27,813 bases of DNA from a candidate division KSB1 bacterium (lineage in GTDB: Bacteria; Zhuqueibacterota; JdFR-76; DREG01). The notes beneath the pieces were generated by a model, which saw nothing but the letters and a program-made list of their open reading frames with translations, was not told the DNA's origin and made no database searches. Location of the stretch: the NCBI GenBank assembly GCA_022566355.1, contig JADFJB010000055.1:1-27813 (forward strand). The letters run 5' to 3'. Positions within the stretch are counted from its first letter, which is position 1. Every line of letters starts with the position of its first letter. This document shows, in pieces, positions 19,052 through 27,294 of this stretch. A program made the position numbers and the translations under genes.

Positions 19052-19858
19052 TTAGTTGCAAACATCATTATCGGTGCGGTAATACTTGGTGTTGTTCAAA
19101 TAAAGAAAACCCTCTTGTATCGATAAGGTAAAATTCTTTGTTTCGCCGCTTGCGTAAGCCAAAGTCAAAATATTGCCGTTGACAGCCCAATTGCCACTAT
19201 TGCCACCATCACTAAAAGCACCACTTCCCAAACTGGAAACACTTCCCCCCTGTCCGCTGCTTTGAAAAGTGCCAACACTGCATAGCCAAATTTGATATTT
19301 TTCACGATACCCCATTCCAACATAAATATATACCAACTGCCTTCCGACCACTTCCTGATACCATTTACCATTATCTGACTTCAGTTGATTCGGCTTAGAA
19401 TTATTAGAAGAAGCAACTGTTTTTCCACTCACAATGGCATTGACTACAACCTGGGCTAAATTGGGTGAAACATCACACGATGGATCATCAATCAAGCACT
19501 TAGTGATTGTCATGCCACACCCACATGTGCAATTTTGAGTGTTAAGTACCTCGATAATTTGATTTTGCTGCTTTGTTGTTAGATGGGAAATATCTATCCG
19601 TTTAAGGGCAATGGGAGCACTTTCATTAGAGATTTCATCAATTATCACCTTAGCCAGTTCAGGGGAGACATCACACGATGGGTCATCCGTCAAGCACTCA
19701 GCGATCGTCATTTCACACCCGCAGGTGCAGTTTTGGGAGGTAAAGGCTTTTTTTACGCGTGCTTGTTGCTCATGTGTCAGGTGTGAGATATCAATTTGAG
19801 CATAACTCATGGATGATATTATGAAGACAAAAACAACAGCAAAAATACATTTATTCAT
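19052..19858 (-). CDS. Secreted protein with duplicated CTCGC cysteine repeats and a C-terminal beta domain
   Basis: An exported protein of 268 aa of unknown function. Residues 1-20 are a Sec signal ending SMSYA. Two copies of a 57-residue unit follow (21-77 and 87-143), each reading IDISHLT..QQ...., then QNCTCGC.MTI..CL.DDPSCDVSP. Each has five cysteines at identical spacing (44, 46, 48, 55, 62 and 110, 112, 114, 121, 128), suggesting metal or cluster binding or disulfides. The C-terminal part (about 164-262) is a predicted beta domain (GRQLVYIYVG, LCSVGTF, GNWAVNGNILTL) like small lipocalin-like add-on domains. The start at 19858 follows AAGGAG with 9 nt spacing; an upstream in-frame ATG at 19906 would bury the signal. 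I do not recognise a named family for the repeat. Confidence 0.8.
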   Translation of the reverse strand: MNKCIFAVVFVFIISSMSYAQIDISHLTHEQQARVKKAFTSQNCTCGCEMTIAECLTDDPSCDVSPELAKVIIDEISNESAPIALKRIDISHLTTKQQNQIIEVLNTQNCTCGCGMTITKCLIDDPSCDVSPNLAQVVVNAIVSGKTVASSNNSKPNQLKSDNGKWYQEVVGRQLVYIYVGMGYREKYQIWLCSVGTFQSSGQGGSVSSLGSGAFSDGGNSGNWAVNGNILTLAYASGETKNFTLSIQEGFLYLNNTKYYRTDNDVCN

Positions 19859-19971
19859 TTTCCAATACTCCTTTCTGCAAGAAATGCGGTTATCGACAAT
19901 CGGCACAATAACTTAGCGTATAAAAACAAAATTACTGTAATATATTAAAATTGTACTTATCAATATCATTA

Positions 19972-20083: not shown

Positions 20084-22096
20084 TTATCTCAGCAAAATGA
20101 GCTTCCTAGTTTGGACGAACTTGTCCGTTTTTAACCGATATAAATACACACCGCTGATTAAATGTAGTCCTTCATTGCTCCGTCCGTTCCATAAGATCGA
20201 ATGTTGACCTGCGGGTCTTTGTTCATTGACCAACCGCCTGACAAGTTGACCAAGTTGATTGTAAATCGTAATTCTGACTAAACCAGCTTTTTCCAAAAAG
20301 TACTCAATTTTTGTTTCGGGATTAAAAGGGTTTGGGTAATTTTGAGAAAGAGTATATTGTCCCGGCACGAATCTTTGTGTTGCGATTCCTGTAAGGATTG
20401 GTTCTTCGACAATCAAGGTACCGCTAAAACCATGCACAGTATGCTGAATGACGAAACTCCCGGTATCTGTGGGCGTAAACTCAAAAGTCGTAACAGCGCG
20501 CGGTCTCACATTACCTGGTTCAGATGGGGAAGGAGCCGTTACCCAAGGTGTAATACTGACCCAATGCTCATCATCAAGGCTAATATTATATATCGTTAAA
20601 GGAATACCTTTAAGTACGCGTATGGTCGCAGGATAAAGTTGCGTTTGGGCATTGCTGTGGATAAGCGAAATGCCTTGCAGGCCAAGTTCGATCACCTTGG
20701 CATCGGCCGCAGCCGCATCTTCAACGACGAGGATGTCGCCAGTAAAACCGTGACCGATGTTCTGGATTTGATAGGTTCCTACATCTTGAGGGGTAAACTC
20801 GACCGTCATAATTTCACCTACACGTACAATGTCAGTTGCATCGATAAAAGGCAGAATGCGCAGACGATTGACGTGTTCACGAGAATTAGTTGTAACCAGA
20901 AGCCGCAAAGGTTGACCGGCAAGTGAGATAGCAGGATCAGGAAAGAAATCCGAATAAAGCATTTGAATTACCGATACTACATGCACGGACTCTTGCGCCG
21001 GAGTTTCGTTAAGAAGAATTGTTATTGTGTTATCACCGGTGTTGGGAACCGCGAGATCAGGTCTACCATCACCATTGAAATCGCCGGCGACGACAGCATG
21101 TGGTGCCAAACCAACCGGGAAGTTTTGCGCATCAGCGAATCCACCCATACCATCGTTCAACAAGACTACTAAGTTATCATTGCCGCCGTCGGCCACAGCC
21201 AAGTCACTTTTGCCATCCCCATCAAAATCTTCAATGACGACCGCAAATGAGGCGTCACCGGCAGGGTAGAATGAGGCGGTAAAACCTCCCTGCAGATCCG
21301 AAAAAAGTGCGTATACCGTCCCATCCAAACAAGCTACTGCGATATCAGAAATACCGTCCTGATTTAAATCACCTACAGCGATGTTTTTGGGTCCCTTGCC
21401 AACCGGGATCGCCGATTCAAAAGCAAATCTGCCCGTTCCATCTCCAGCCAGGACCACCAATGTATCGCTAAAATCGTTGCCTACTGCTAAGTCGATGAAG
21501 CCATCACCATTAAAATCGGCTGCCTCTATTGGAACCGGACCATCGCCGGTGTAAAAGTCGCCTACTTTCACAAAATTGCCGTTGCCATCACCCAACAATA
21601 CGGTGACGTTGTCGTCATCACGATTGGTAACCGCAAGATCTGCATGACCATCTTCATTGAAATCAGAAATCGCAATCCAGCGCGGTCCCCTGCCGGTTGC
21701 AAAGAAAGTTGGGACGAGGAAGCTACCTGTACCATCTCCTATAAACACGCTAACAGTGTTGCTATCTCGATTAGCGGTGACCGCATCCAGCAAACCATCC
21801 TCATTAAAGTCGCCAGATGCGATGGCATGCGGCGCTTTATGGATGGTAGCAATACTACCCTGCAATGTGAAAGAGCCGGTGCCGGTGCCCAAAATAAGCG
21901 AAATTGTTGAGCCAAATATATTTGCAACCGCCAGATCACGATTGCCGTCACGATCCAGGTCAACCAAGATTACCGAGCGTGGACCATTACCGGCCGGTAC
22001 GGTCATGGACGAAAATTGCAACTTGGGTGTTTGGGCATGAAGTGACGACACTGAAATCATAACAAGTACAAGTAGAGTGGAAGCTAAATGTTTCAT
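20084..22096 (-). CDS. Secreted FG-GAP/VCBS propeller protein with two cupredoxin-like domains and sorting tail
   Basis: Cell-surface or secreted protein of 670 aa. A Sec signal ends near residue 21 (SSLHA). Seven FG-GAP/VCBS repeats (about 40-370) each carry a calcium-binding loop such as DLDRDGNRD, DFNEDGLLD, DFNGDGFID, DFDGDGKSD, consistent with a seven-bladed propeller. Two cupredoxin-like domains follow (about 375-465 and 468-565), each ending FTP.D.G...IQ...HGF.G.L.V. The copper-ligand cysteine expected before the HG motif is N or Q here, so a classical type 1 copper site is unlikely. The end (about 577-670) is a sorting domain with NYPNPFNPETKIEY, GVYLYRL and final RKLILLR. AAGGAAAG lies before the ATG. 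Function unknown; binding or adhesion is plausible. Confidence 0.88.
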   Translation of the reverse strand: MKHLASTLLVLVMISVSSLHAQTPKLQFSSMTVPAGNGPRSVILVDLDRDGNRDLAVANIFGSTISLILGTGTGSFTLQGSIATIHKAPHAIASGDFNEDGLLDAVTANRDSNTVSVFIGDGTGSFLVPTFFATGRGPRWIAISDFNEDGHADLAVTNRDDDNVTVLLGDGNGNFVKVGDFYTGDGPVPIEAADFNGDGFIDLAVGNDFSDTLVVLAGDGTGRFAFESAIPVGKGPKNIAVGDLNQDGISDIAVACLDGTVYALFSDLQGGFTASFYPAGDASFAVVIEDFDGDGKSDLAVADGGNDNLVVLLNDGMGGFADAQNFPVGLAPHAVVAGDFNGDGRPDLAVPNTGDNTITILLNETPAQESVHVVSVIQMLYSDFFPDPAISLAGQPLRLLVTTNSREHVNRLRILPFIDATDIVRVGEIMTVEFTPQDVGTYQIQNIGHGFTGDILVVEDAAAADAKVIELGLQGISLIHSNAQTQLYPATIRVLKGIPLTIYNISLDDEHWVSITPWVTAPSPSEPGNVRPRAVTTFEFTPTDTGSFVIQHTVHGFSGTLIVEEPILTGIATQRFVPGQYTLSQNYPNPFNPETKIEYFLEKAGLVRITIYNQLGQLVRRLVNEQRPAGQHSILWNGRSNEGLHLISGVYLYRLKTDKFVQTRKLILLR

Positions 22097-22580: not shown

Positions 22581-23435
22581 TTATCTTTTCAGAAACAGCC
22601 CGAAGGAAAAAACCGATGCTGATAGTGTGTTTTCGGCAAATATCGCACTGTCCACACCAAACGAAATGCCGAGTTTGTCATTCATCGCGTAAACCAACTC
22701 CGGCCCATAAGCAAGAAAACTCTGATTATTGGCAAATAATCCGCCCATGCCTCCCATAACCGAATCATTACCATTCTTGAGCGATTGAACACCCGTTGCG
22801 CGCAAGATAAAGGTTAGCCTTTGCTTAATTTGGTATCCGAGCTCAAACCCATATCTGAATTCATCGGAATAGCCCTTCGAACGATTGTTAAAACCCGCTT
22901 CTGACGCAAAATACACCGGAGTTGGGTAGAAGGAATGGCCAATCTGAAGCGAGACAAACTGATTGAACTCGCCATCGCTGGTGAGCAGACCATTAGCTTG
23001 TTGATCGTCTCCTAGCGGCAGGCCAAACATGAACCCAAGGCTCAGCACAGTCGAGCCATCCTGACGTAGACCAAATCGAAATCCAACATCGGCATCGGCA
23101 ATGCCTGAGATCGCATCACCTTCGAAATAGACAAAGCCACTCTCCTGGCCAACCTGGCGGTTCAACGTAATCCGCTTGTAAAACGGAATATAGGCCACCA
23201 AAGTAATTCTATCCGTAAGACCGTGTTCTCCATAAAAACTCAATGTATTATCTCCAAGAGTCGGAATGCTGATTTTATTGCCATTGGGTTCGTAAAACTC
23301 ATTTGCCCGGATAAAACGAAATCCGATCTTGTAAAAACCACGGCCTTTCTTCTGTGTCCAGCTACCGGCAAACAAAAACGTTGGTAGTGCAATCACGATT
23401 AGCAGCATGGAGATGAATCTACTCTTTTCTCGCAT
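22581..23435 (-). CDS. Outer-membrane beta-barrel protein, second gene of DM13 operon
   Basis: Predicted outer-membrane barrel of 284 aa. A Sec signal (FISMLLIVIALPTFLFAG) is followed by GSWTQKKGRGFYKIGFRFIR, which resembles the start of XagA-type and related transporter-like barrels, and by alternating amphipathic strands to the end (SASVFSFGLFLKR). No cysteines or heme motifs. I choose ATG 23435 because GGAGG lies 6 nt upstream; the ATG at 23450, next to the stop of the upstream gene, would place that site inside the coding region. The gap to the DM13 gene is 15 nt, so the two are almost certainly co-transcribed and may work together at the outer membrane. Confidence 0.8.
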   Translation of the reverse strand: MREKSRFISMLLIVIALPTFLFAGSWTQKKGRGFYKIGFRFIRANEFYEPNGNKISIPTLGDNTLSFYGEHGLTDRITLVAYIPFYKRITLNRQVGQESGFVYFEGDAISGIADADVGFRFGLRQDGSTVLSLGFMFGLPLGDDQQANGLLTSDGEFNQFVSLQIGHSFYPTPVYFASEAGFNNRSKGYSDEFRYGFELGYQIKQRLTFILRATGVQSLKNGNDSVMGGMGGLFANNQSFLAYGPELVYAMNDKLGISFGVDSAIFAENTLSASVFSFGLFLKR

Positions 23436-23450
23436 CTTAATCCTCCGCAT

Positions 23451-24386
23451 TTATTTCAATTCAGCATAGCCGAAAGTCACATTGAACGGCTTGCAATGGA
23501 TAATCACCCAGGAATAGGTATCCAATTCGATATCCCCTTGAATTGTATAAAGTTGTTGACCTTGCGTGCTATTCAATCTTTCAACTTCGAGACTGTTTGA
23601 TCCTACGGAATTCGAAGTAGAGAGATAGACATAAAGTCCGGGACCATTGCTGCTTAAAAAGTTGTCATCGAATTGTAGCAATAGGTTGCCATTATCTTGT
23701 TTTTCCATTGTGACCCCACCCCGAACCGTATACGAACTCCCAGGTCGAGGTACGAACTGACCGGACTTTGTTTGGCCGAGCACTTCGAATAGCGCCGGAC
23801 TACTATCGATACCGTCCACAGTTGCGGTTATTTCCGCGATACCAGGTTTGAGAGCGGTTGCAAGACCGTTTACATCAATGCCCGCTATTTCCGGACTGCC
23901 GCTCCGCCACATCACTACCTTTCCGGCAATCGTATCGCCATTCAAGTTTAATACCATCGCTGAGAACTGTATTGTTAGGCCAGGACTACTATTGGCTGAA
24001 TCGGGAGTTACAATAACGGTCGCCACCTGATTTGGGTCTGTCACGATAGTTAGCAAAACGGGTTCGCTCACAATGTTGTTTACTTTTGCCACTATCTGAA
24101 CCTGACCCGGCATGATACCGGAAGCAGTGCCATTGTCATCGATAACCGCAATATCTGAATTTGAGCTTGTCCATTGGAAGACTGTCGATTGTACTTGCTG
24201 GCCCAAACTGTCGTAGTACGTCGCAGCAAAATCGATGTTTTCGCCTACACGAATCGCGCTGTTTGCTGGCTCTATCTCAATCTTCGGTTCAAAAAGTTGA
24301 ACCGGATCCTGAATAAAGTCAGTTCCGACACAGCTCGTTGCAAACGTTAAAAGCAATAGAGCTGCTGCCAATTTCTTCCGAAACAT
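23451..24386 (-). CDS. Lipoprotein with two Ig-like (Big_2) domains and a DM13 domain
   Basis: Envelope lipoprotein of 311 aa. The signal ends in a lipobox ATSC (C19). Two bacterial Ig-like (Big_2 type) domains follow at about 35-115 and 120-202 (for example WTSSNSDIAVIDDNGTASGI and SGSPEIAGIDVNGLATALKP). Residues 208-311 are a DM13 domain: GQFVPRPGSSYTVRGGVTME, DDNFLSSNGPGLYVYLS and the closing HCKPFNVTFGYAEL with its conserved cysteine C298. DM13 is suggested to act in redox or electron transfer by comparative work on animal DOMON-DM13 proteins; its bacterial role is not established. A strong site (GAGGAG) lies before the ATG. It is the first gene of an operon with an outer-membrane barrel. 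Confidence 0.87.
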   Translation of the reverse strand: MFRKKLAAALLLLTFATSCVGTDFIQDPVQLFEPKIEIEPANSAIRVGENIDFAATYYDSLGQQVQSTVFQWTSSNSDIAVIDDNGTASGIMPGQVQIVAKVNNIVSEPVLLTIVTDPNQVATVIVTPDSANSSPGLTIQFSAMVLNLNGDTIAGKVVMWRSGSPEIAGIDVNGLATALKPGIAEITATVDGIDSSPALFEVLGQTKSGQFVPRPGSSYTVRGGVTMEKQDNGNLLLQFDDNFLSSNGPGLYVYLSTSNSVGSNSLEVERLNSTQGQQLYTIQGDIELDTYSWVIIHCKPFNVTFGYAELK

Positions 24387-24663: not shown

Positions 24664-27294
24664 TTATCTCAACAGTATCATCTTCCTGTTCTGAACTTCG
24701 TTTCCGGCTGATAATCGATATACATAAACACCGGCGCTAACGGTTTCTCCGTGATTATCTTTGCTATCCCAGGTGACCGATTGATTTCCTGCTGGCTGTC
24801 GGTGATCCACCAAAGTGCGCACTTCCTGACCGAGGGAATTGAAAATCCTTAAAATAACCTGTTCACCTCTGGGAAGATCATATGTAATCTTTGTTGCAGG
24901 GTTAAAAGGGTTTGGAAAATTTTGCTGCAGCTCGAAACTGGTGGCAACCGGAAACGACCTATCAGGTTCGAGGCCGGTAATGTCGGATAAATCCATTTTG
25001 TACATCGAGCGTCCGTGGGTTCCGGCAACCAAAAAATGTTCAGTGGGATGAATCTTCAAATCCGTTACGGTGACCATTGGCATGCCGCTGCCCAGAGCCT
25101 CCCAGATTTGCCCGTTGTCGATGCTGATATAAGCGCCGACATCCGTCCCGACATATATAATATTCGCTTCAATTGGATCGATAGCGATAGCATTAATGGG
25201 GGCGTTGGGTAAATTACTGCTGATATCTGTCCAGGTTTCAGCCATATTCATAGTACGAAAAATATGCGGTTCCGGATCGTGCCATTTTAGCCCGGAAAAA
25301 GTAACGTAGGCGATATTTTCATCCGTCGGATCAACCGCGACCCGGGTGATCCAGCGGTATGGCATGTTGGGACCGGTAACTTCGTTCCAGGTTGCACCAA
25401 GATCCGTGCTCAGCCAGACGTGACTATCGTCAGTACCGGCATAAATGATATCGGAATTGGTTGCAGCAACGGCGATAGTGGTAACAGTTCCCAGGCGGGG
25501 ACCGCCTTCGGTCAAATCAGGGCTGATCGCGGTCCAACTCGCCGCTCCGTTCTCAGTTCGATAAACCCGATTGGTTCCATAATACAACCTCGAAACATTG
25601 TTGGGATCCATCACCACTGGTGTTGACCAATTTGTCGGTTCGGACGGATCGATACCATTATTAACTGGTTGAAAGCTCACCCCACCATTGGTGGATTTAC
25701 CCAAGTCACCGAATTGTGACTCGGAGTAGATGATATTCGGGTTGGTGGGATCAATAATCACATAGAAGCCGTCACCACCGAAAATGAACTCCCAGTCATC
25801 CAAGTCACCGGTGAGAGTTCGCGTGGTCCCGTTATCTTGAGTTCCGCCGTATAATCTTTCAGGATTATTGAGGTCCAACCCGATTTCGTAAAATTGAGTG
25901 ACGGGTAAATCAGCAGTTTCTGTCCATGTTAAACCTCCGTTTGTAGAAATATCGATGCCACCATCATTTCCGGTAATGATATGATCCGAATTTTGGGGAT
26001 TAAATTTTAGATCATGAAAATCAACATGAAAAAGAGATTCAGCACTCCAGCTAAAACCGCCATCGGTCGTTTGCGAAAGCAAGACGTCCAGGACATACAC
26101 AATATCGGGATTTTCCGGATGAACTCGCACCTGACCAAAATACCAGCTAAAACCGCCGAAACCATTGGAAAGCTGGTTGTTCGGGTCAGCATCGGTCCAG
26201 GTATTACCCTGATCTGTGGTTTTGAAAAGCCCCAGGTATGCTTGCCCATCATTATAAAGTGCATAAATGATATCCGGCTCACTCTGACTGATTGCCAAAC
26301 CAATACGCCCCACATCTGTGGCCAGAGGATTGGGTAAACCACTGAAATTCGGATCGATCAATTCCCAACTATCGCCGCCATCAAAGCTGCGAAAAATACC
26401 GCTGGTTTCGCCGAAAAGATGATTTGACTGCGGACGACGAACCCGTTCCCACATGGCCGCCATCATAAAGGAAGGATTTGTAGGATCCATAACCAGATCA
26501 ATTGCGCCGGTAGAATCACTAACGAAGAGGACTTGTGACCAACTGGCCCCGCCGTCTTCGCTGCGGTAGATTCCCCGCTCCGGGTTGGGTGCAAAATAAG
26601 AGCCGACAGCCGCAACAAACACCCGTTGAGTATTCGTCGGATCGATCAACACCCGGCCGATAGAGACGGTACTCTCCAGGCCCATCAACTGCCAAGTAGA
26701 ACCGGCATCAATGGATTTATAAATGCCTGCACCCGGGAAATTATTATGACCGCCATTCGGCTCGCCGGTTCCGACGTAAATGATATTCGGGTTGATGGGA
26801 TCAATCGCAATATCACCCATAGTCAAGATCGCCTGATCATCAAAAATCGGCTCCCAGGTGACACCGGCATCGTTGGATTTGAACATACCGCCAGTGCTGG
26901 GAATAGCGTAAATATTATTAGGGTCCAAAGGATCGAATTCGATATCATGAACTCTCCCCTGTACATTGGTTGGCCCGGCAAATTCCCATTGCAAATCGAA
27001 ACTGATTCGCGAGATTTTCTTCGATCTCATTGCCTGAGCAGTTCTCAACATCTCTAAATGGGCATCTTTTTCCGCTTTCCAGTGAGGAAAAGTTCTCTGT
27101 TTCCAGAACCATTCCGAGGGCCGTGGGTCCGGTCCCGAGCCGGGTTTTTCTAAGAGGCGTGTGAAATTCTCGTTCGCATTCGGTGTATTATGCATGAATG
27201 AAAAATATATTAAAAGAGCAGCACAAAGCATAAGAGTAAGCAGCACTGATATATGAATAGCCTCTTTTGACAGACCTTTTCGGAAGTTTTTCAT
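24664..27294 (-). CDS. Large exported BNR/Asp-box (sortilin-like) propeller protein with sorting tail
   Basis: Exported protein of 876 aa. Residues 12-35 are a hydrophobic signal or anchor. From about 100 to 770 there are at least twelve Asp-box (BNR) motifs of the form S.D.G..W (SNDAGVTW, SIDAGSTW, SEDGGASW, SFDGGDSW, TTDQGNTW, TTDGGFSW, STNGGLTW and others), each after a DP.NP..IY strand, giving a sortilin/VPS10-like or sialidase-like propeller. The catalytic residues of sialidases are not evident, so a binding role is more likely. The C-terminal 90 residues are a sorting domain (NFPNPFNPATKITYDL, GVYVYRL, RKMILLR). There is no good ribosome-binding site. Upstream in frame lies a decayed kinase N-terminus, so a longer product starting there cannot be fully excluded, but no ATG exists. 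Confidence 0.88.
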   Translation of the reverse strand: MKNFRKGLSKEAIHISVLLTLMLCAALLIYFSFMHNTPNANENFTRLLEKPGSGPDPRPSEWFWKQRTFPHWKAEKDAHLEMLRTAQAMRSKKISRISFDLQWEFAGPTNVQGRVHDIEFDPLDPNNIYAIPSTGGMFKSNDAGVTWEPIFDDQAILTMGDIAIDPINPNIIYVGTGEPNGGHNNFPGAGIYKSIDAGSTWQLMGLESTVSIGRVLIDPTNTQRVFVAAVGSYFAPNPERGIYRSEDGGASWSQVLFVSDSTGAIDLVMDPTNPSFMMAAMWERVRRPQSNHLFGETSGIFRSFDGGDSWELIDPNFSGLPNPLATDVGRIGLAISQSEPDIIYALYNDGQAYLGLFKTTDQGNTWTDADPNNQLSNGFGGFSWYFGQVRVHPENPDIVYVLDVLLSQTTDGGFSWSAESLFHVDFHDLKFNPQNSDHIITGNDGGIDISTNGGLTWTETADLPVTQFYEIGLDLNNPERLYGGTQDNGTTRTLTGDLDDWEFIFGGDGFYVIIDPTNPNIIYSESQFGDLGKSTNGGVSFQPVNNGIDPSEPTNWSTPVVMDPNNVSRLYYGTNRVYRTENGAASWTAISPDLTEGGPRLGTVTTIAVAATNSDIIYAGTDDSHVWLSTDLGATWNEVTGPNMPYRWITRVAVDPTDENIAYVTFSGLKWHDPEPHIFRTMNMAETWTDISSNLPNAPINAIAIDPIEANIIYVGTDVGAYISIDNGQIWEALGSGMPMVTVTDLKIHPTEHFLVAGTHGRSMYKMDLSDITGLEPDRSFPVATSFELQQNFPNPFNPATKITYDLPRGEQVILRIFNSLGQEVRTLVDHRQPAGNQSVTWDSKDNHGETVSAGVYVYRLSAGNEVQNRKMILLR

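What the first reader, a model, noticed from the sequence alone, without database searches (positions are those of the whole stretch)
22581..24386. DM13-Ig lipoprotein co-transcribed with an outer-membrane barrel
A lipoprotein with two Ig-like domains and a DM13 domain (conserved cysteine C298 in HCKPFNVTFGY) is followed at 15 nt by an outer-membrane barrel. DM13 has been proposed as redox-related in animals; a bacterial pairing with a barrel suggests a surface-exposed redox or substrate-handling complex that I cannot match to a described system. Domain calls are direct; the joint function is inference.
Basis: partly seen in the sequence, partly recalled or inferred. Interest (0 to 1): 0.6.

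Follow-up and report, generated by a model that had tools for sequence, protein, structure and literature searches.

The report
DM13 lipoprotein–outer-membrane barrel gene pair
Two neighbouring genes encode a lipoprotein carrying a DM13 domain with one never-varying cysteine and a 12-stranded outer-membrane channel; the same pair recurs in several bacterial phyla, often near oxidative-stress and redox genes, so it is probably an undescribed envelope redox module whose chemistry is still unproven.

Summary
Window 22581-24386 (- strand) encodes a 311-aa lipoprotein (two Big_2 Ig domains, DM13 at residues 221-310, E 6e-14) followed at 15 nt by a 12-stranded barrel of the COG4313/PF13557 fold. It is not a one-off. 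In this phylum (KSB1) DM13 occurs in 11 of 82 genomes, and the close barrel occurs in exactly those 11, always just downstream. The pair also recurs in Calditrichota, Bacteroidota/Kapaibacteria, Zixiibacteriota-type MAGs and, with a duplicated barrel plus 1- and 5-heme cytochromes, in a further clade. The DM13 cysteine is invariant wherever it was covered, including sets fetched without selecting for it. In Bacteroidota without this pair, DM13 lipoproteins still usually abut another barrel-like protein (13 of 20 loci), and DoxX, YHS, YceI, methionine-sulfoxide reductases, DUF547 and regulators gather around DM13, echoing S. aureus SaeP(DM13)-SaeQ(DoxX)-SaeRS. Best reading: an outer-membrane redox or oxidant-handling module; conserved pair about 0.9, redox mechanism about 0.45. 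Main rival: ligand (glycan or hydrophobic) capture without redox. I found no description of the pairing in the literature I could search.

The parts
23451..24386 (-). CDS of DM13 lipoprotein, 311 aa
   Evidence: ORF; Pfam Big_2 and DM13; orthologues 43-81% identical
24330..24386 (-). lipoprotein signal peptide and lipobox, C19 followed by V-G-T-D
   Evidence: C19, G21, T22, D23 invariant in 10 orthologues
24042..24296 (-). first Big_2 Ig-like domain (about residues 31-115)
   Evidence: Pfam: two Big_2 stretches; PDB profile match to LigA over both Ig domains. Missing together with the second in orthologue L041
23775..24032 (-). second Big_2 Ig-like domain (about residues 119-204)
   Evidence: Pfam best stretch 121-191; structural matches
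23457..23726 (-). DM13 domain (residues 221-310)
   Evidence: PF10517 E 6.4e-14; only copy in the genome
23493..23498 (-). H297-C298; C298 is the only mature cysteine besides the lipidated C19
   Evidence: Cys present in 137 of 138 aligned DM13 domain matches (one truncated), residue before it H/W/Y/F, rarely Q/N; cysteine counts
23436..23450 (-). 15-nt spacer between the two genes (alternative ATG at 23450 would abolish it)
   Evidence: the G030 orthologue has only the 15-nt start
22581..23435 (-). CDS of 12-stranded outer-membrane barrel, 284 aa, COG4313/PF13557-type
   Evidence: always adjacent to DM13 in the 11 genomes of this phylum that have it

Best explanation
A two-gene outer-membrane module. 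SHOWN: the genes are adjacent, same-strand, tightly spaced and co-conserved; one is a lipoprotein holding a DM13 domain on two Ig spacers, the other a predicted 12-stranded channel of the COG4313/FapF fold. INFERRED: the lipoprotein sits in the outer membrane beside the barrel; its single free, invariant DM13 cysteine (naked thiol or cofactor ligand) does redox chemistry on an oxidant or on a small, probably hydrophobic, molecule that the barrel passes or binds, as part of an envelope oxidative-stress or redox response controlled in some lineages by an ECF sigma factor or a two-component system.
For: DM13 and the close barrel coincide in the same 11 of 82 genomes, adjacent every time. The pair recurs in five named MAGs from other groups (L060, L061, L064, L065, L066), in the Bacteroidota sample (13 of 15 genomes with the barrel at E<1e-30) and in a tandem-barrel clade. 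Gene distances -61 to 210 nt at the longest ORF, mostly under 30; DM13 and barrel distances correlate r=0.82 over 34 genomes. Cys invariant in 29/29 unlinked Bacteroidota-type and 39/39 barrel-linked entries, most of which were fetched without selecting for Cys. Unlinked Bacteroidota DM13 genes abut a barrel-like gene in 13 of 20 loci: CSDAG family 8, a second family 3, window-type paralogue 2. DoxX 6/20 and YHS 6/20 within 4 kb versus 0 and 1 at 4-8 kb; YceI 3, MsrB 2; in KSB1 DUF547 4/10, YHS 3/10, DoxX 2/10, none at 4-8 kb. The CSDAG barrels carry an invariant CSDAG[IF]C pair. Mono- and pentaheme cytochromes follow the tandem barrels in 6 of 6 loci. SaeP is a DM13 lipoprotein encoded with DoxX-family SaeQ and the SaeRS system, which responds to neutrophil components including hydrogen peroxide (PMC7189620).
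Against: No redox activity has been shown for any DM13 protein in the papers I could read. The window's own flanks carry no redox or regulatory gene, and most Bacteroidota pairs stand alone, so the redox guild is not universal. The barrel of the window has no cysteine. Neighbours conserved within a close clade (the cytochromes) may be inherited synteny. The DM13 model resembles a carbohydrate-binding module. Cys and H/W counts for the cyanobacterial and actinobacterial sets are biased, as the search pattern itself required [HW]C.
Confidence: 0.45

Rival explanations
1. Ligand capture without redox: DM13 on Ig spacers is a binding module (glycan or hydrophobic ligand) that hands its ligand to the barrel, like a small Sus-type lipoprotein-channel pair; the cysteine is structural.
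For: VIA-align pairs the model's second Ig plus DM13 (119-311) with Big_2-CBM56 of a beta-1,3-glucanase, 7r3t: Z 14.2, 155 aligned, rmsd 6.0. COG4313 channels are implicated in uptake of hydrophobic molecules (PMC4493636); the barrel also matches the oligosaccharide porins KdgM and NanC at Z 19-20. Insect Knickkopf, with two DM13 domains, protects chitin (PMC4140639).
Against: The Ig domain alone gives Z about 12, so the DM13 share of the match is modest; no sequence link DM13-CBM56. No glycoside hydrolase was noticed as a recurrent neighbour. A purely structural lone cysteine would not be expected to stay invariant while the FGxAxL motif is lost.
Confidence: 0.25
2. Signal accessory: the DM13 lipoprotein is a sensor or modulator of an envelope regulator, as SaeP is for SaeS, and the barrel is part of the sensing or is the regulated output.
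For: Two-component genes and an RskA_C-like lipoprotein lie upstream in L033 and L039; a two-component pair lies upstream in L066, with ECF sigma genes in L034 and L066. A Streptomyces plasmid DM13 gene is flanked by two two-component systems. SaeP precedent (PMC7189620).
Against: Most pairs have no regulator nearby, including the window. The barrel is more constant than any regulator.
Confidence: 0.15
3. Secretion pore: the barrel exports a polypeptide as FapF does, and the lipoprotein is its surface anchor or substrate.
For: FapF is the best Foldseek match and ties with 4rl8 by Z.
Against: No Fap-like subunit, chaperone or protease was noticed beside the pair; FapF is built on the same fold as small-molecule COG4313 channels.
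Confidence: 0.07
4. Chance or merely inherited adjacency of two functionally unrelated envelope genes.
For: Within one phylum, vertical inheritance alone keeps neighbours together.
Against: Patchy (11/82) yet coincident occurrence; same pair in several phyla while flanking genes differ; other barrel families paired with DM13.
Confidence: 0.05

Closest known systems
SaeP/SaeQ accessory proteins of the Staphylococcus aureus Sae system
   Same: Lipoprotein with a DM13 domain; DoxX-family partner and regulator genes alongside, as in some relatives of the window pair (PMC7189620).
   Different: Gram-positive, no outer membrane and no barrel; no Ig domains are reported for SaeP. The window itself has no DoxX or regulator gene next to it.
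COG4313 / PF13557 channels (Pput2725, SphA, TcpY)
   Same: 12-stranded barrel, best structural match 4rl8 Z 23.7; orthologues match PF13557.
   Different: About 8% identity in the structural alignment; those channels are linked to catabolic genes or a regulator, not to a DM13 lipoprotein (PMC4493636).
FapF, amyloid secretion pore of Pseudomonas
   Same: Same barrel fold, Z 22.9.
   Different: No other Fap gene noticed in the neighbourhood.
Knickkopf family of insects (two DM13 domains + DOMON)
   Same: DM13 domains on extracellular, membrane-anchored proteins (PMC4140639).
   Different: GPI- or TM-anchored, with DOMON; no Ig or barrel partner.
Big_2-CBM56 C-terminal region of Paenibacillus bglH (7quz/7r3t)
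   Same: Ig followed by a beta-sandwich that aligns with the Ig-DM13 part of the model.
   Different: No detectable sequence relation of DM13 to CBM56.

Membership tests
DM13 (PF10517) | profile score over the curated cut-off | tested here: met
   52.9 bits vs cut-off 25
DM13 (PF10517) | nearly invariant cysteine near the C-terminus | tested here: met
   C298; 137 of 138 aligned domain matches, the other truncated
DM13 (PF10517) | electron-transfer function suggested by the family name | not testable with these tools
   name only; no assay
COG4313/PF13557 channels | 12-stranded barrel of 270-320 aa | tested here: met
   284 aa precursor, 12 long strands in AF2 model; 4rl8 Z 23.7, rmsd 2.6, 240 aligned
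COG4313/PF13557 channels | sequence profile match | tested here: inconclusive
   window protein none; 5 of 11 orthologues match, best E 7.7e-11
COG4313/PF13557 channels | N-terminal segment occluding the lumen; uptake of hydrophobics | not testable with these tools
   residues 1-29 of the model have pLDDT < 50
Sae-like accessory system (DM13 + DoxX + two-component system) | DoxX-family partner next to DM13 | tested here: not met
   no DoxX among the ORFs around the window pair; present in relatives L034 and six of L237-L242
Sae-like accessory system (DM13 + DoxX + two-component system) | two-component genes in the same cluster | tested here: not met
   none beside the pair in the window; present in L033, L039, L066
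FapF secretion system | fap operon partners beside the barrel | not tested
   no dedicated Fap profile search; neighbours read by eye only
CBM56 | CBM56-like fold of the DM13 domain | tested here: inconclusive

The most novel reading that the evidence does not exclude
A widespread, undescribed outer-membrane redox module of FCB-group bacteria: DM13 lipoprotein plus channel (several barrel families recruited), extended in some lineages by DoxX, YHS, YceI, methionine-sulfoxide reductases or multiheme cytochromes, moving reducing equivalents or a redox-active small molecule across or along the outer membrane, with S. aureus SaePQ as its Gram-positive counterpart.
Probability: 0.25. Interest if true: 0.8.

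Novelty: new variant of a known kind. Interest (0 to 1): 0.55.

Why it matters
DM13 is named an electron-transfer domain without biochemical proof in anything I could read. A compact two-gene module with a single candidate residue, and a consistent gene guild in relatives, makes the function of DM13 testable in ordinary Bacteroidota, and would bear on what SaeP does in S. aureus and what DM13 does in insect Knickkopf.

Tried and rejected
PDB sequence search for DM13 and for the barrel: no usable match. Profile comparison of the window barrel with the two other DM13-linked barrel-like families: no detectable relation, although one CSDAG member matches PF13557 at 1e-4. H297 as a barrel-specific feature: rejected, since 18 of 29 unlinked Bacteroidota-type DM13 also have H and some linked ones have Y/W/F. 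Ig domains as essential: orthologue L041 lacks both and keeps the pair. Cytochromes as general partners: only in the tandem-barrel clade. DM13-CBM56 sequence link: none found. Literature: of the listed papers holding 'DM13', few concern the domain and none describes a barrel pairing. Promoter/terminator scan: no signal above shuffles.

Full report
OBSERVATION. On the minus strand, 23451-24386 encodes a 311-aa protein and 22581-23435 (or 23450) a barrel. Pfam gives two Big_2 stretches and DM13 at 221-310, E 6.4e-14. The lipobox is FATS-C19. The AF2 model of the lipoprotein has mean pLDDT 89 with three beta domains. The genome has no other DM13. The spacing is 15 nt with the start used by the G030 orthologue.

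THE BARREL. It has no Pfam hit of its own, but 5 of 11 orthologues match PF13557. AF2 (pLDDT 76, pTM 0.72) shows 12 long strands. Foldseek ranks FapF first and the COG4313 channel 4rl8 next; VIA-align gives 4rl8 Z 23.7 (240 aligned, rmsd 2.6) and FapF 22.9, which are tied, with KdgM and NanC at 19-20. COG4313 channels have been implicated in uptake of hydrophobic molecules (PMC4493636).

RECURRENCE IN THE PHYLUM. DM13 is found in 11 of 82 genomes. A profile of the barrel finds scores of 440-510 bits in exactly those 11 genomes; every other hit is at 120 bits or below. In all 11 the barrel lies directly downstream on the same strand. If placed at random, two sets of 11 among 82 would coincide once in 1.4e13, though shared ancestry makes the genomes non-independent. 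Named relatives are candidate division KSB1 and a Caldithrix MAG.

RECURRENCE ELSEWHERE. A scan of 84,980 genomes with a DM13 alignment returned 80 loci; the 12 best all have the barrel adjacent, and the other 68 (cyanobacteria and actinobacteria) have none. The 12 include MAGs labelled Bacteroidetes, Kapaibacterium, Zixiibacteriota, Calditrichaeota and Nitrosomonas. Barrel searches of 395 genomes in the phylum of the Kapaibacterium MAG gave 15 genomes at E<1e-30, of which 13 have DM13 upstream; exceptions are G226 and G152, plus a second barrel copy in G439 that abuts DUF547. In the phylum of the Zixiibacteriota MAG, 11 further genomes carry two barrels, tandem in all but one whose contigs break, behind a DM13-like, Ig-rich lipoprotein, followed in 6 of 6 inspected loci by a one-CxxCH and a five-CxxCH protein.

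COUPLING. In 34 representative genomes the gap ranges from -61 to 210 nt at the longest ORF, mostly below 30, with overlaps such as -4 and -1; DM13 and barrel distance matrices correlate at r=0.82 (0 of 999 permutations as high; not corrected for the species tree). Orthologue L041 has lost both Ig domains but keeps DM13 and barrel, so the Ig domains probably act as spacers (inference).

THE CYSTEINE. C298 is invariant in all barrel-linked DM13 proteins, even in the tandem-barrel clade where the following FGxAxL motif is gone. Over 138 aligned domain matches it is missing in one truncated entry. The cyanobacterial and actinobacterial entries were selected by a pattern that contains the cysteine, so only the 29 other Bacteroidota-type entries and most linked ones are unbiased. 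In the window protein it is the only cysteine besides the lipidated one; the barrel has none. The preceding residue is H, Y, W, F or rarely Q/N, and does not track the barrel.

THE DM13 GUILD. In the same 395-genome sample, 43 genomes have DM13. Of 20 loci without the close window-type barrel, 13 have another barrel-like gene beside it on the same strand: 8 of a family starting QGCSDAG[IF]C, 3 of a second family, 2 weak window-type barrels. The first family ends in F or W and keeps both motif cysteines in 8 of 8; that it and the second family are barrels is read from sequence character, with one weak PF13557 match. DoxX and YHS (Pfam-scanned seeds) occur within 4 kb in 6 and 6 of 20 loci against 0 and 1 at 4-8 kb; YceI 3, MsrB 2. 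In KSB1, DUF547 4, YHS 3, DoxX 2 of 10, none at 4-8 kb. L034 holds DUF547-DM13-barrel-YHS-ECF-DoxX. L033, L039 and L066 have two-component genes upstream. L041 has a molybdopterin oxidoreductase (MsrP-like by sequence) downstream. L192 has MsrAB next to a barrel without DM13.

MECHANISM. Shown: a conserved lipoprotein-barrel pair with one invariant cysteine, belonging to a domain family whose neighbourhoods are enriched in redox and stress genes. Inferred: localisation, physical contact, and the chemistry. I favour envelope redox or oxidant handling (0.45) over capture of a glycan or hydrophobic ligand (0.25), which draws on a CBM56-like alignment of the Ig-DM13 part (the Ig alone accounts for much of it), over a SaeP-like signalling role (0.15), secretion (0.07) and chance (0.05).

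KNOWN OR NEW. DM13, DoxX-linked DM13 lipoproteins (SaeP/SaeQ, PMC7189620) and COG4313-type barrels are each known. The DM13-barrel pairing was not found in the open-access papers searched; subscription papers, including the original DM13/DOMON analysis, could not be read. I rate it a new variant of a known kind.

Noticed in passing
window 19052-19906 (-): Secreted protein with two copies of a cysteine-rich motif QNCTCGC(E/G)MTI..CL.DDPSCDVSPELA, then a weak lipocalin-like domain; no Pfam family for the repeat.
   Followed up: no
window 24664-27294 and 20084-22096 (-): Sortilin/BNR-repeat and FG-GAP proteins with type IX secretion C-terminal tails flank the pair.
   Followed up: no
L190 3002-3835 and 2271-2999 (-): Window-type barrel directly followed by a DUF547 gene, with no DM13 nearby.
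   Followed up: partly
L192 7561-8661 and 8679-9503 (+): MsrA-MsrB fusion gene 17 nt upstream of a window-type barrel without DM13.
   Followed up: partly
L183-L188: Tandem barrels behind an Ig-rich DM13-like lipoprotein, then a 150-aa gene, a one-CxxCH and a five-CxxCH cytochrome-like protein.
   Followed up: partly
L066: Contig labelled Nitrosomonas carries a KSB1-like pair, a type IX secretion tail protein with Spondin_N and two-component genes; probably misbinned.
   Followed up: no
L251 7859-10269 (+): A window-type barrel lies between two DM13 genes on the same strand.
   Followed up: no
L037 8166-8206 (-): The DM13 gene is split between two ORFs while tblastn reads through in one frame; pseudogene or assembly error.
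   Followed up: no
L039 4602-5510 and L033 7497-8471: RskA_C-like (anti-sigma-K C-terminal) lipoprotein between the two-component genes and DM13; RskA_C also matches one DM13 domain weakly (E 0.013).
   Followed up: no
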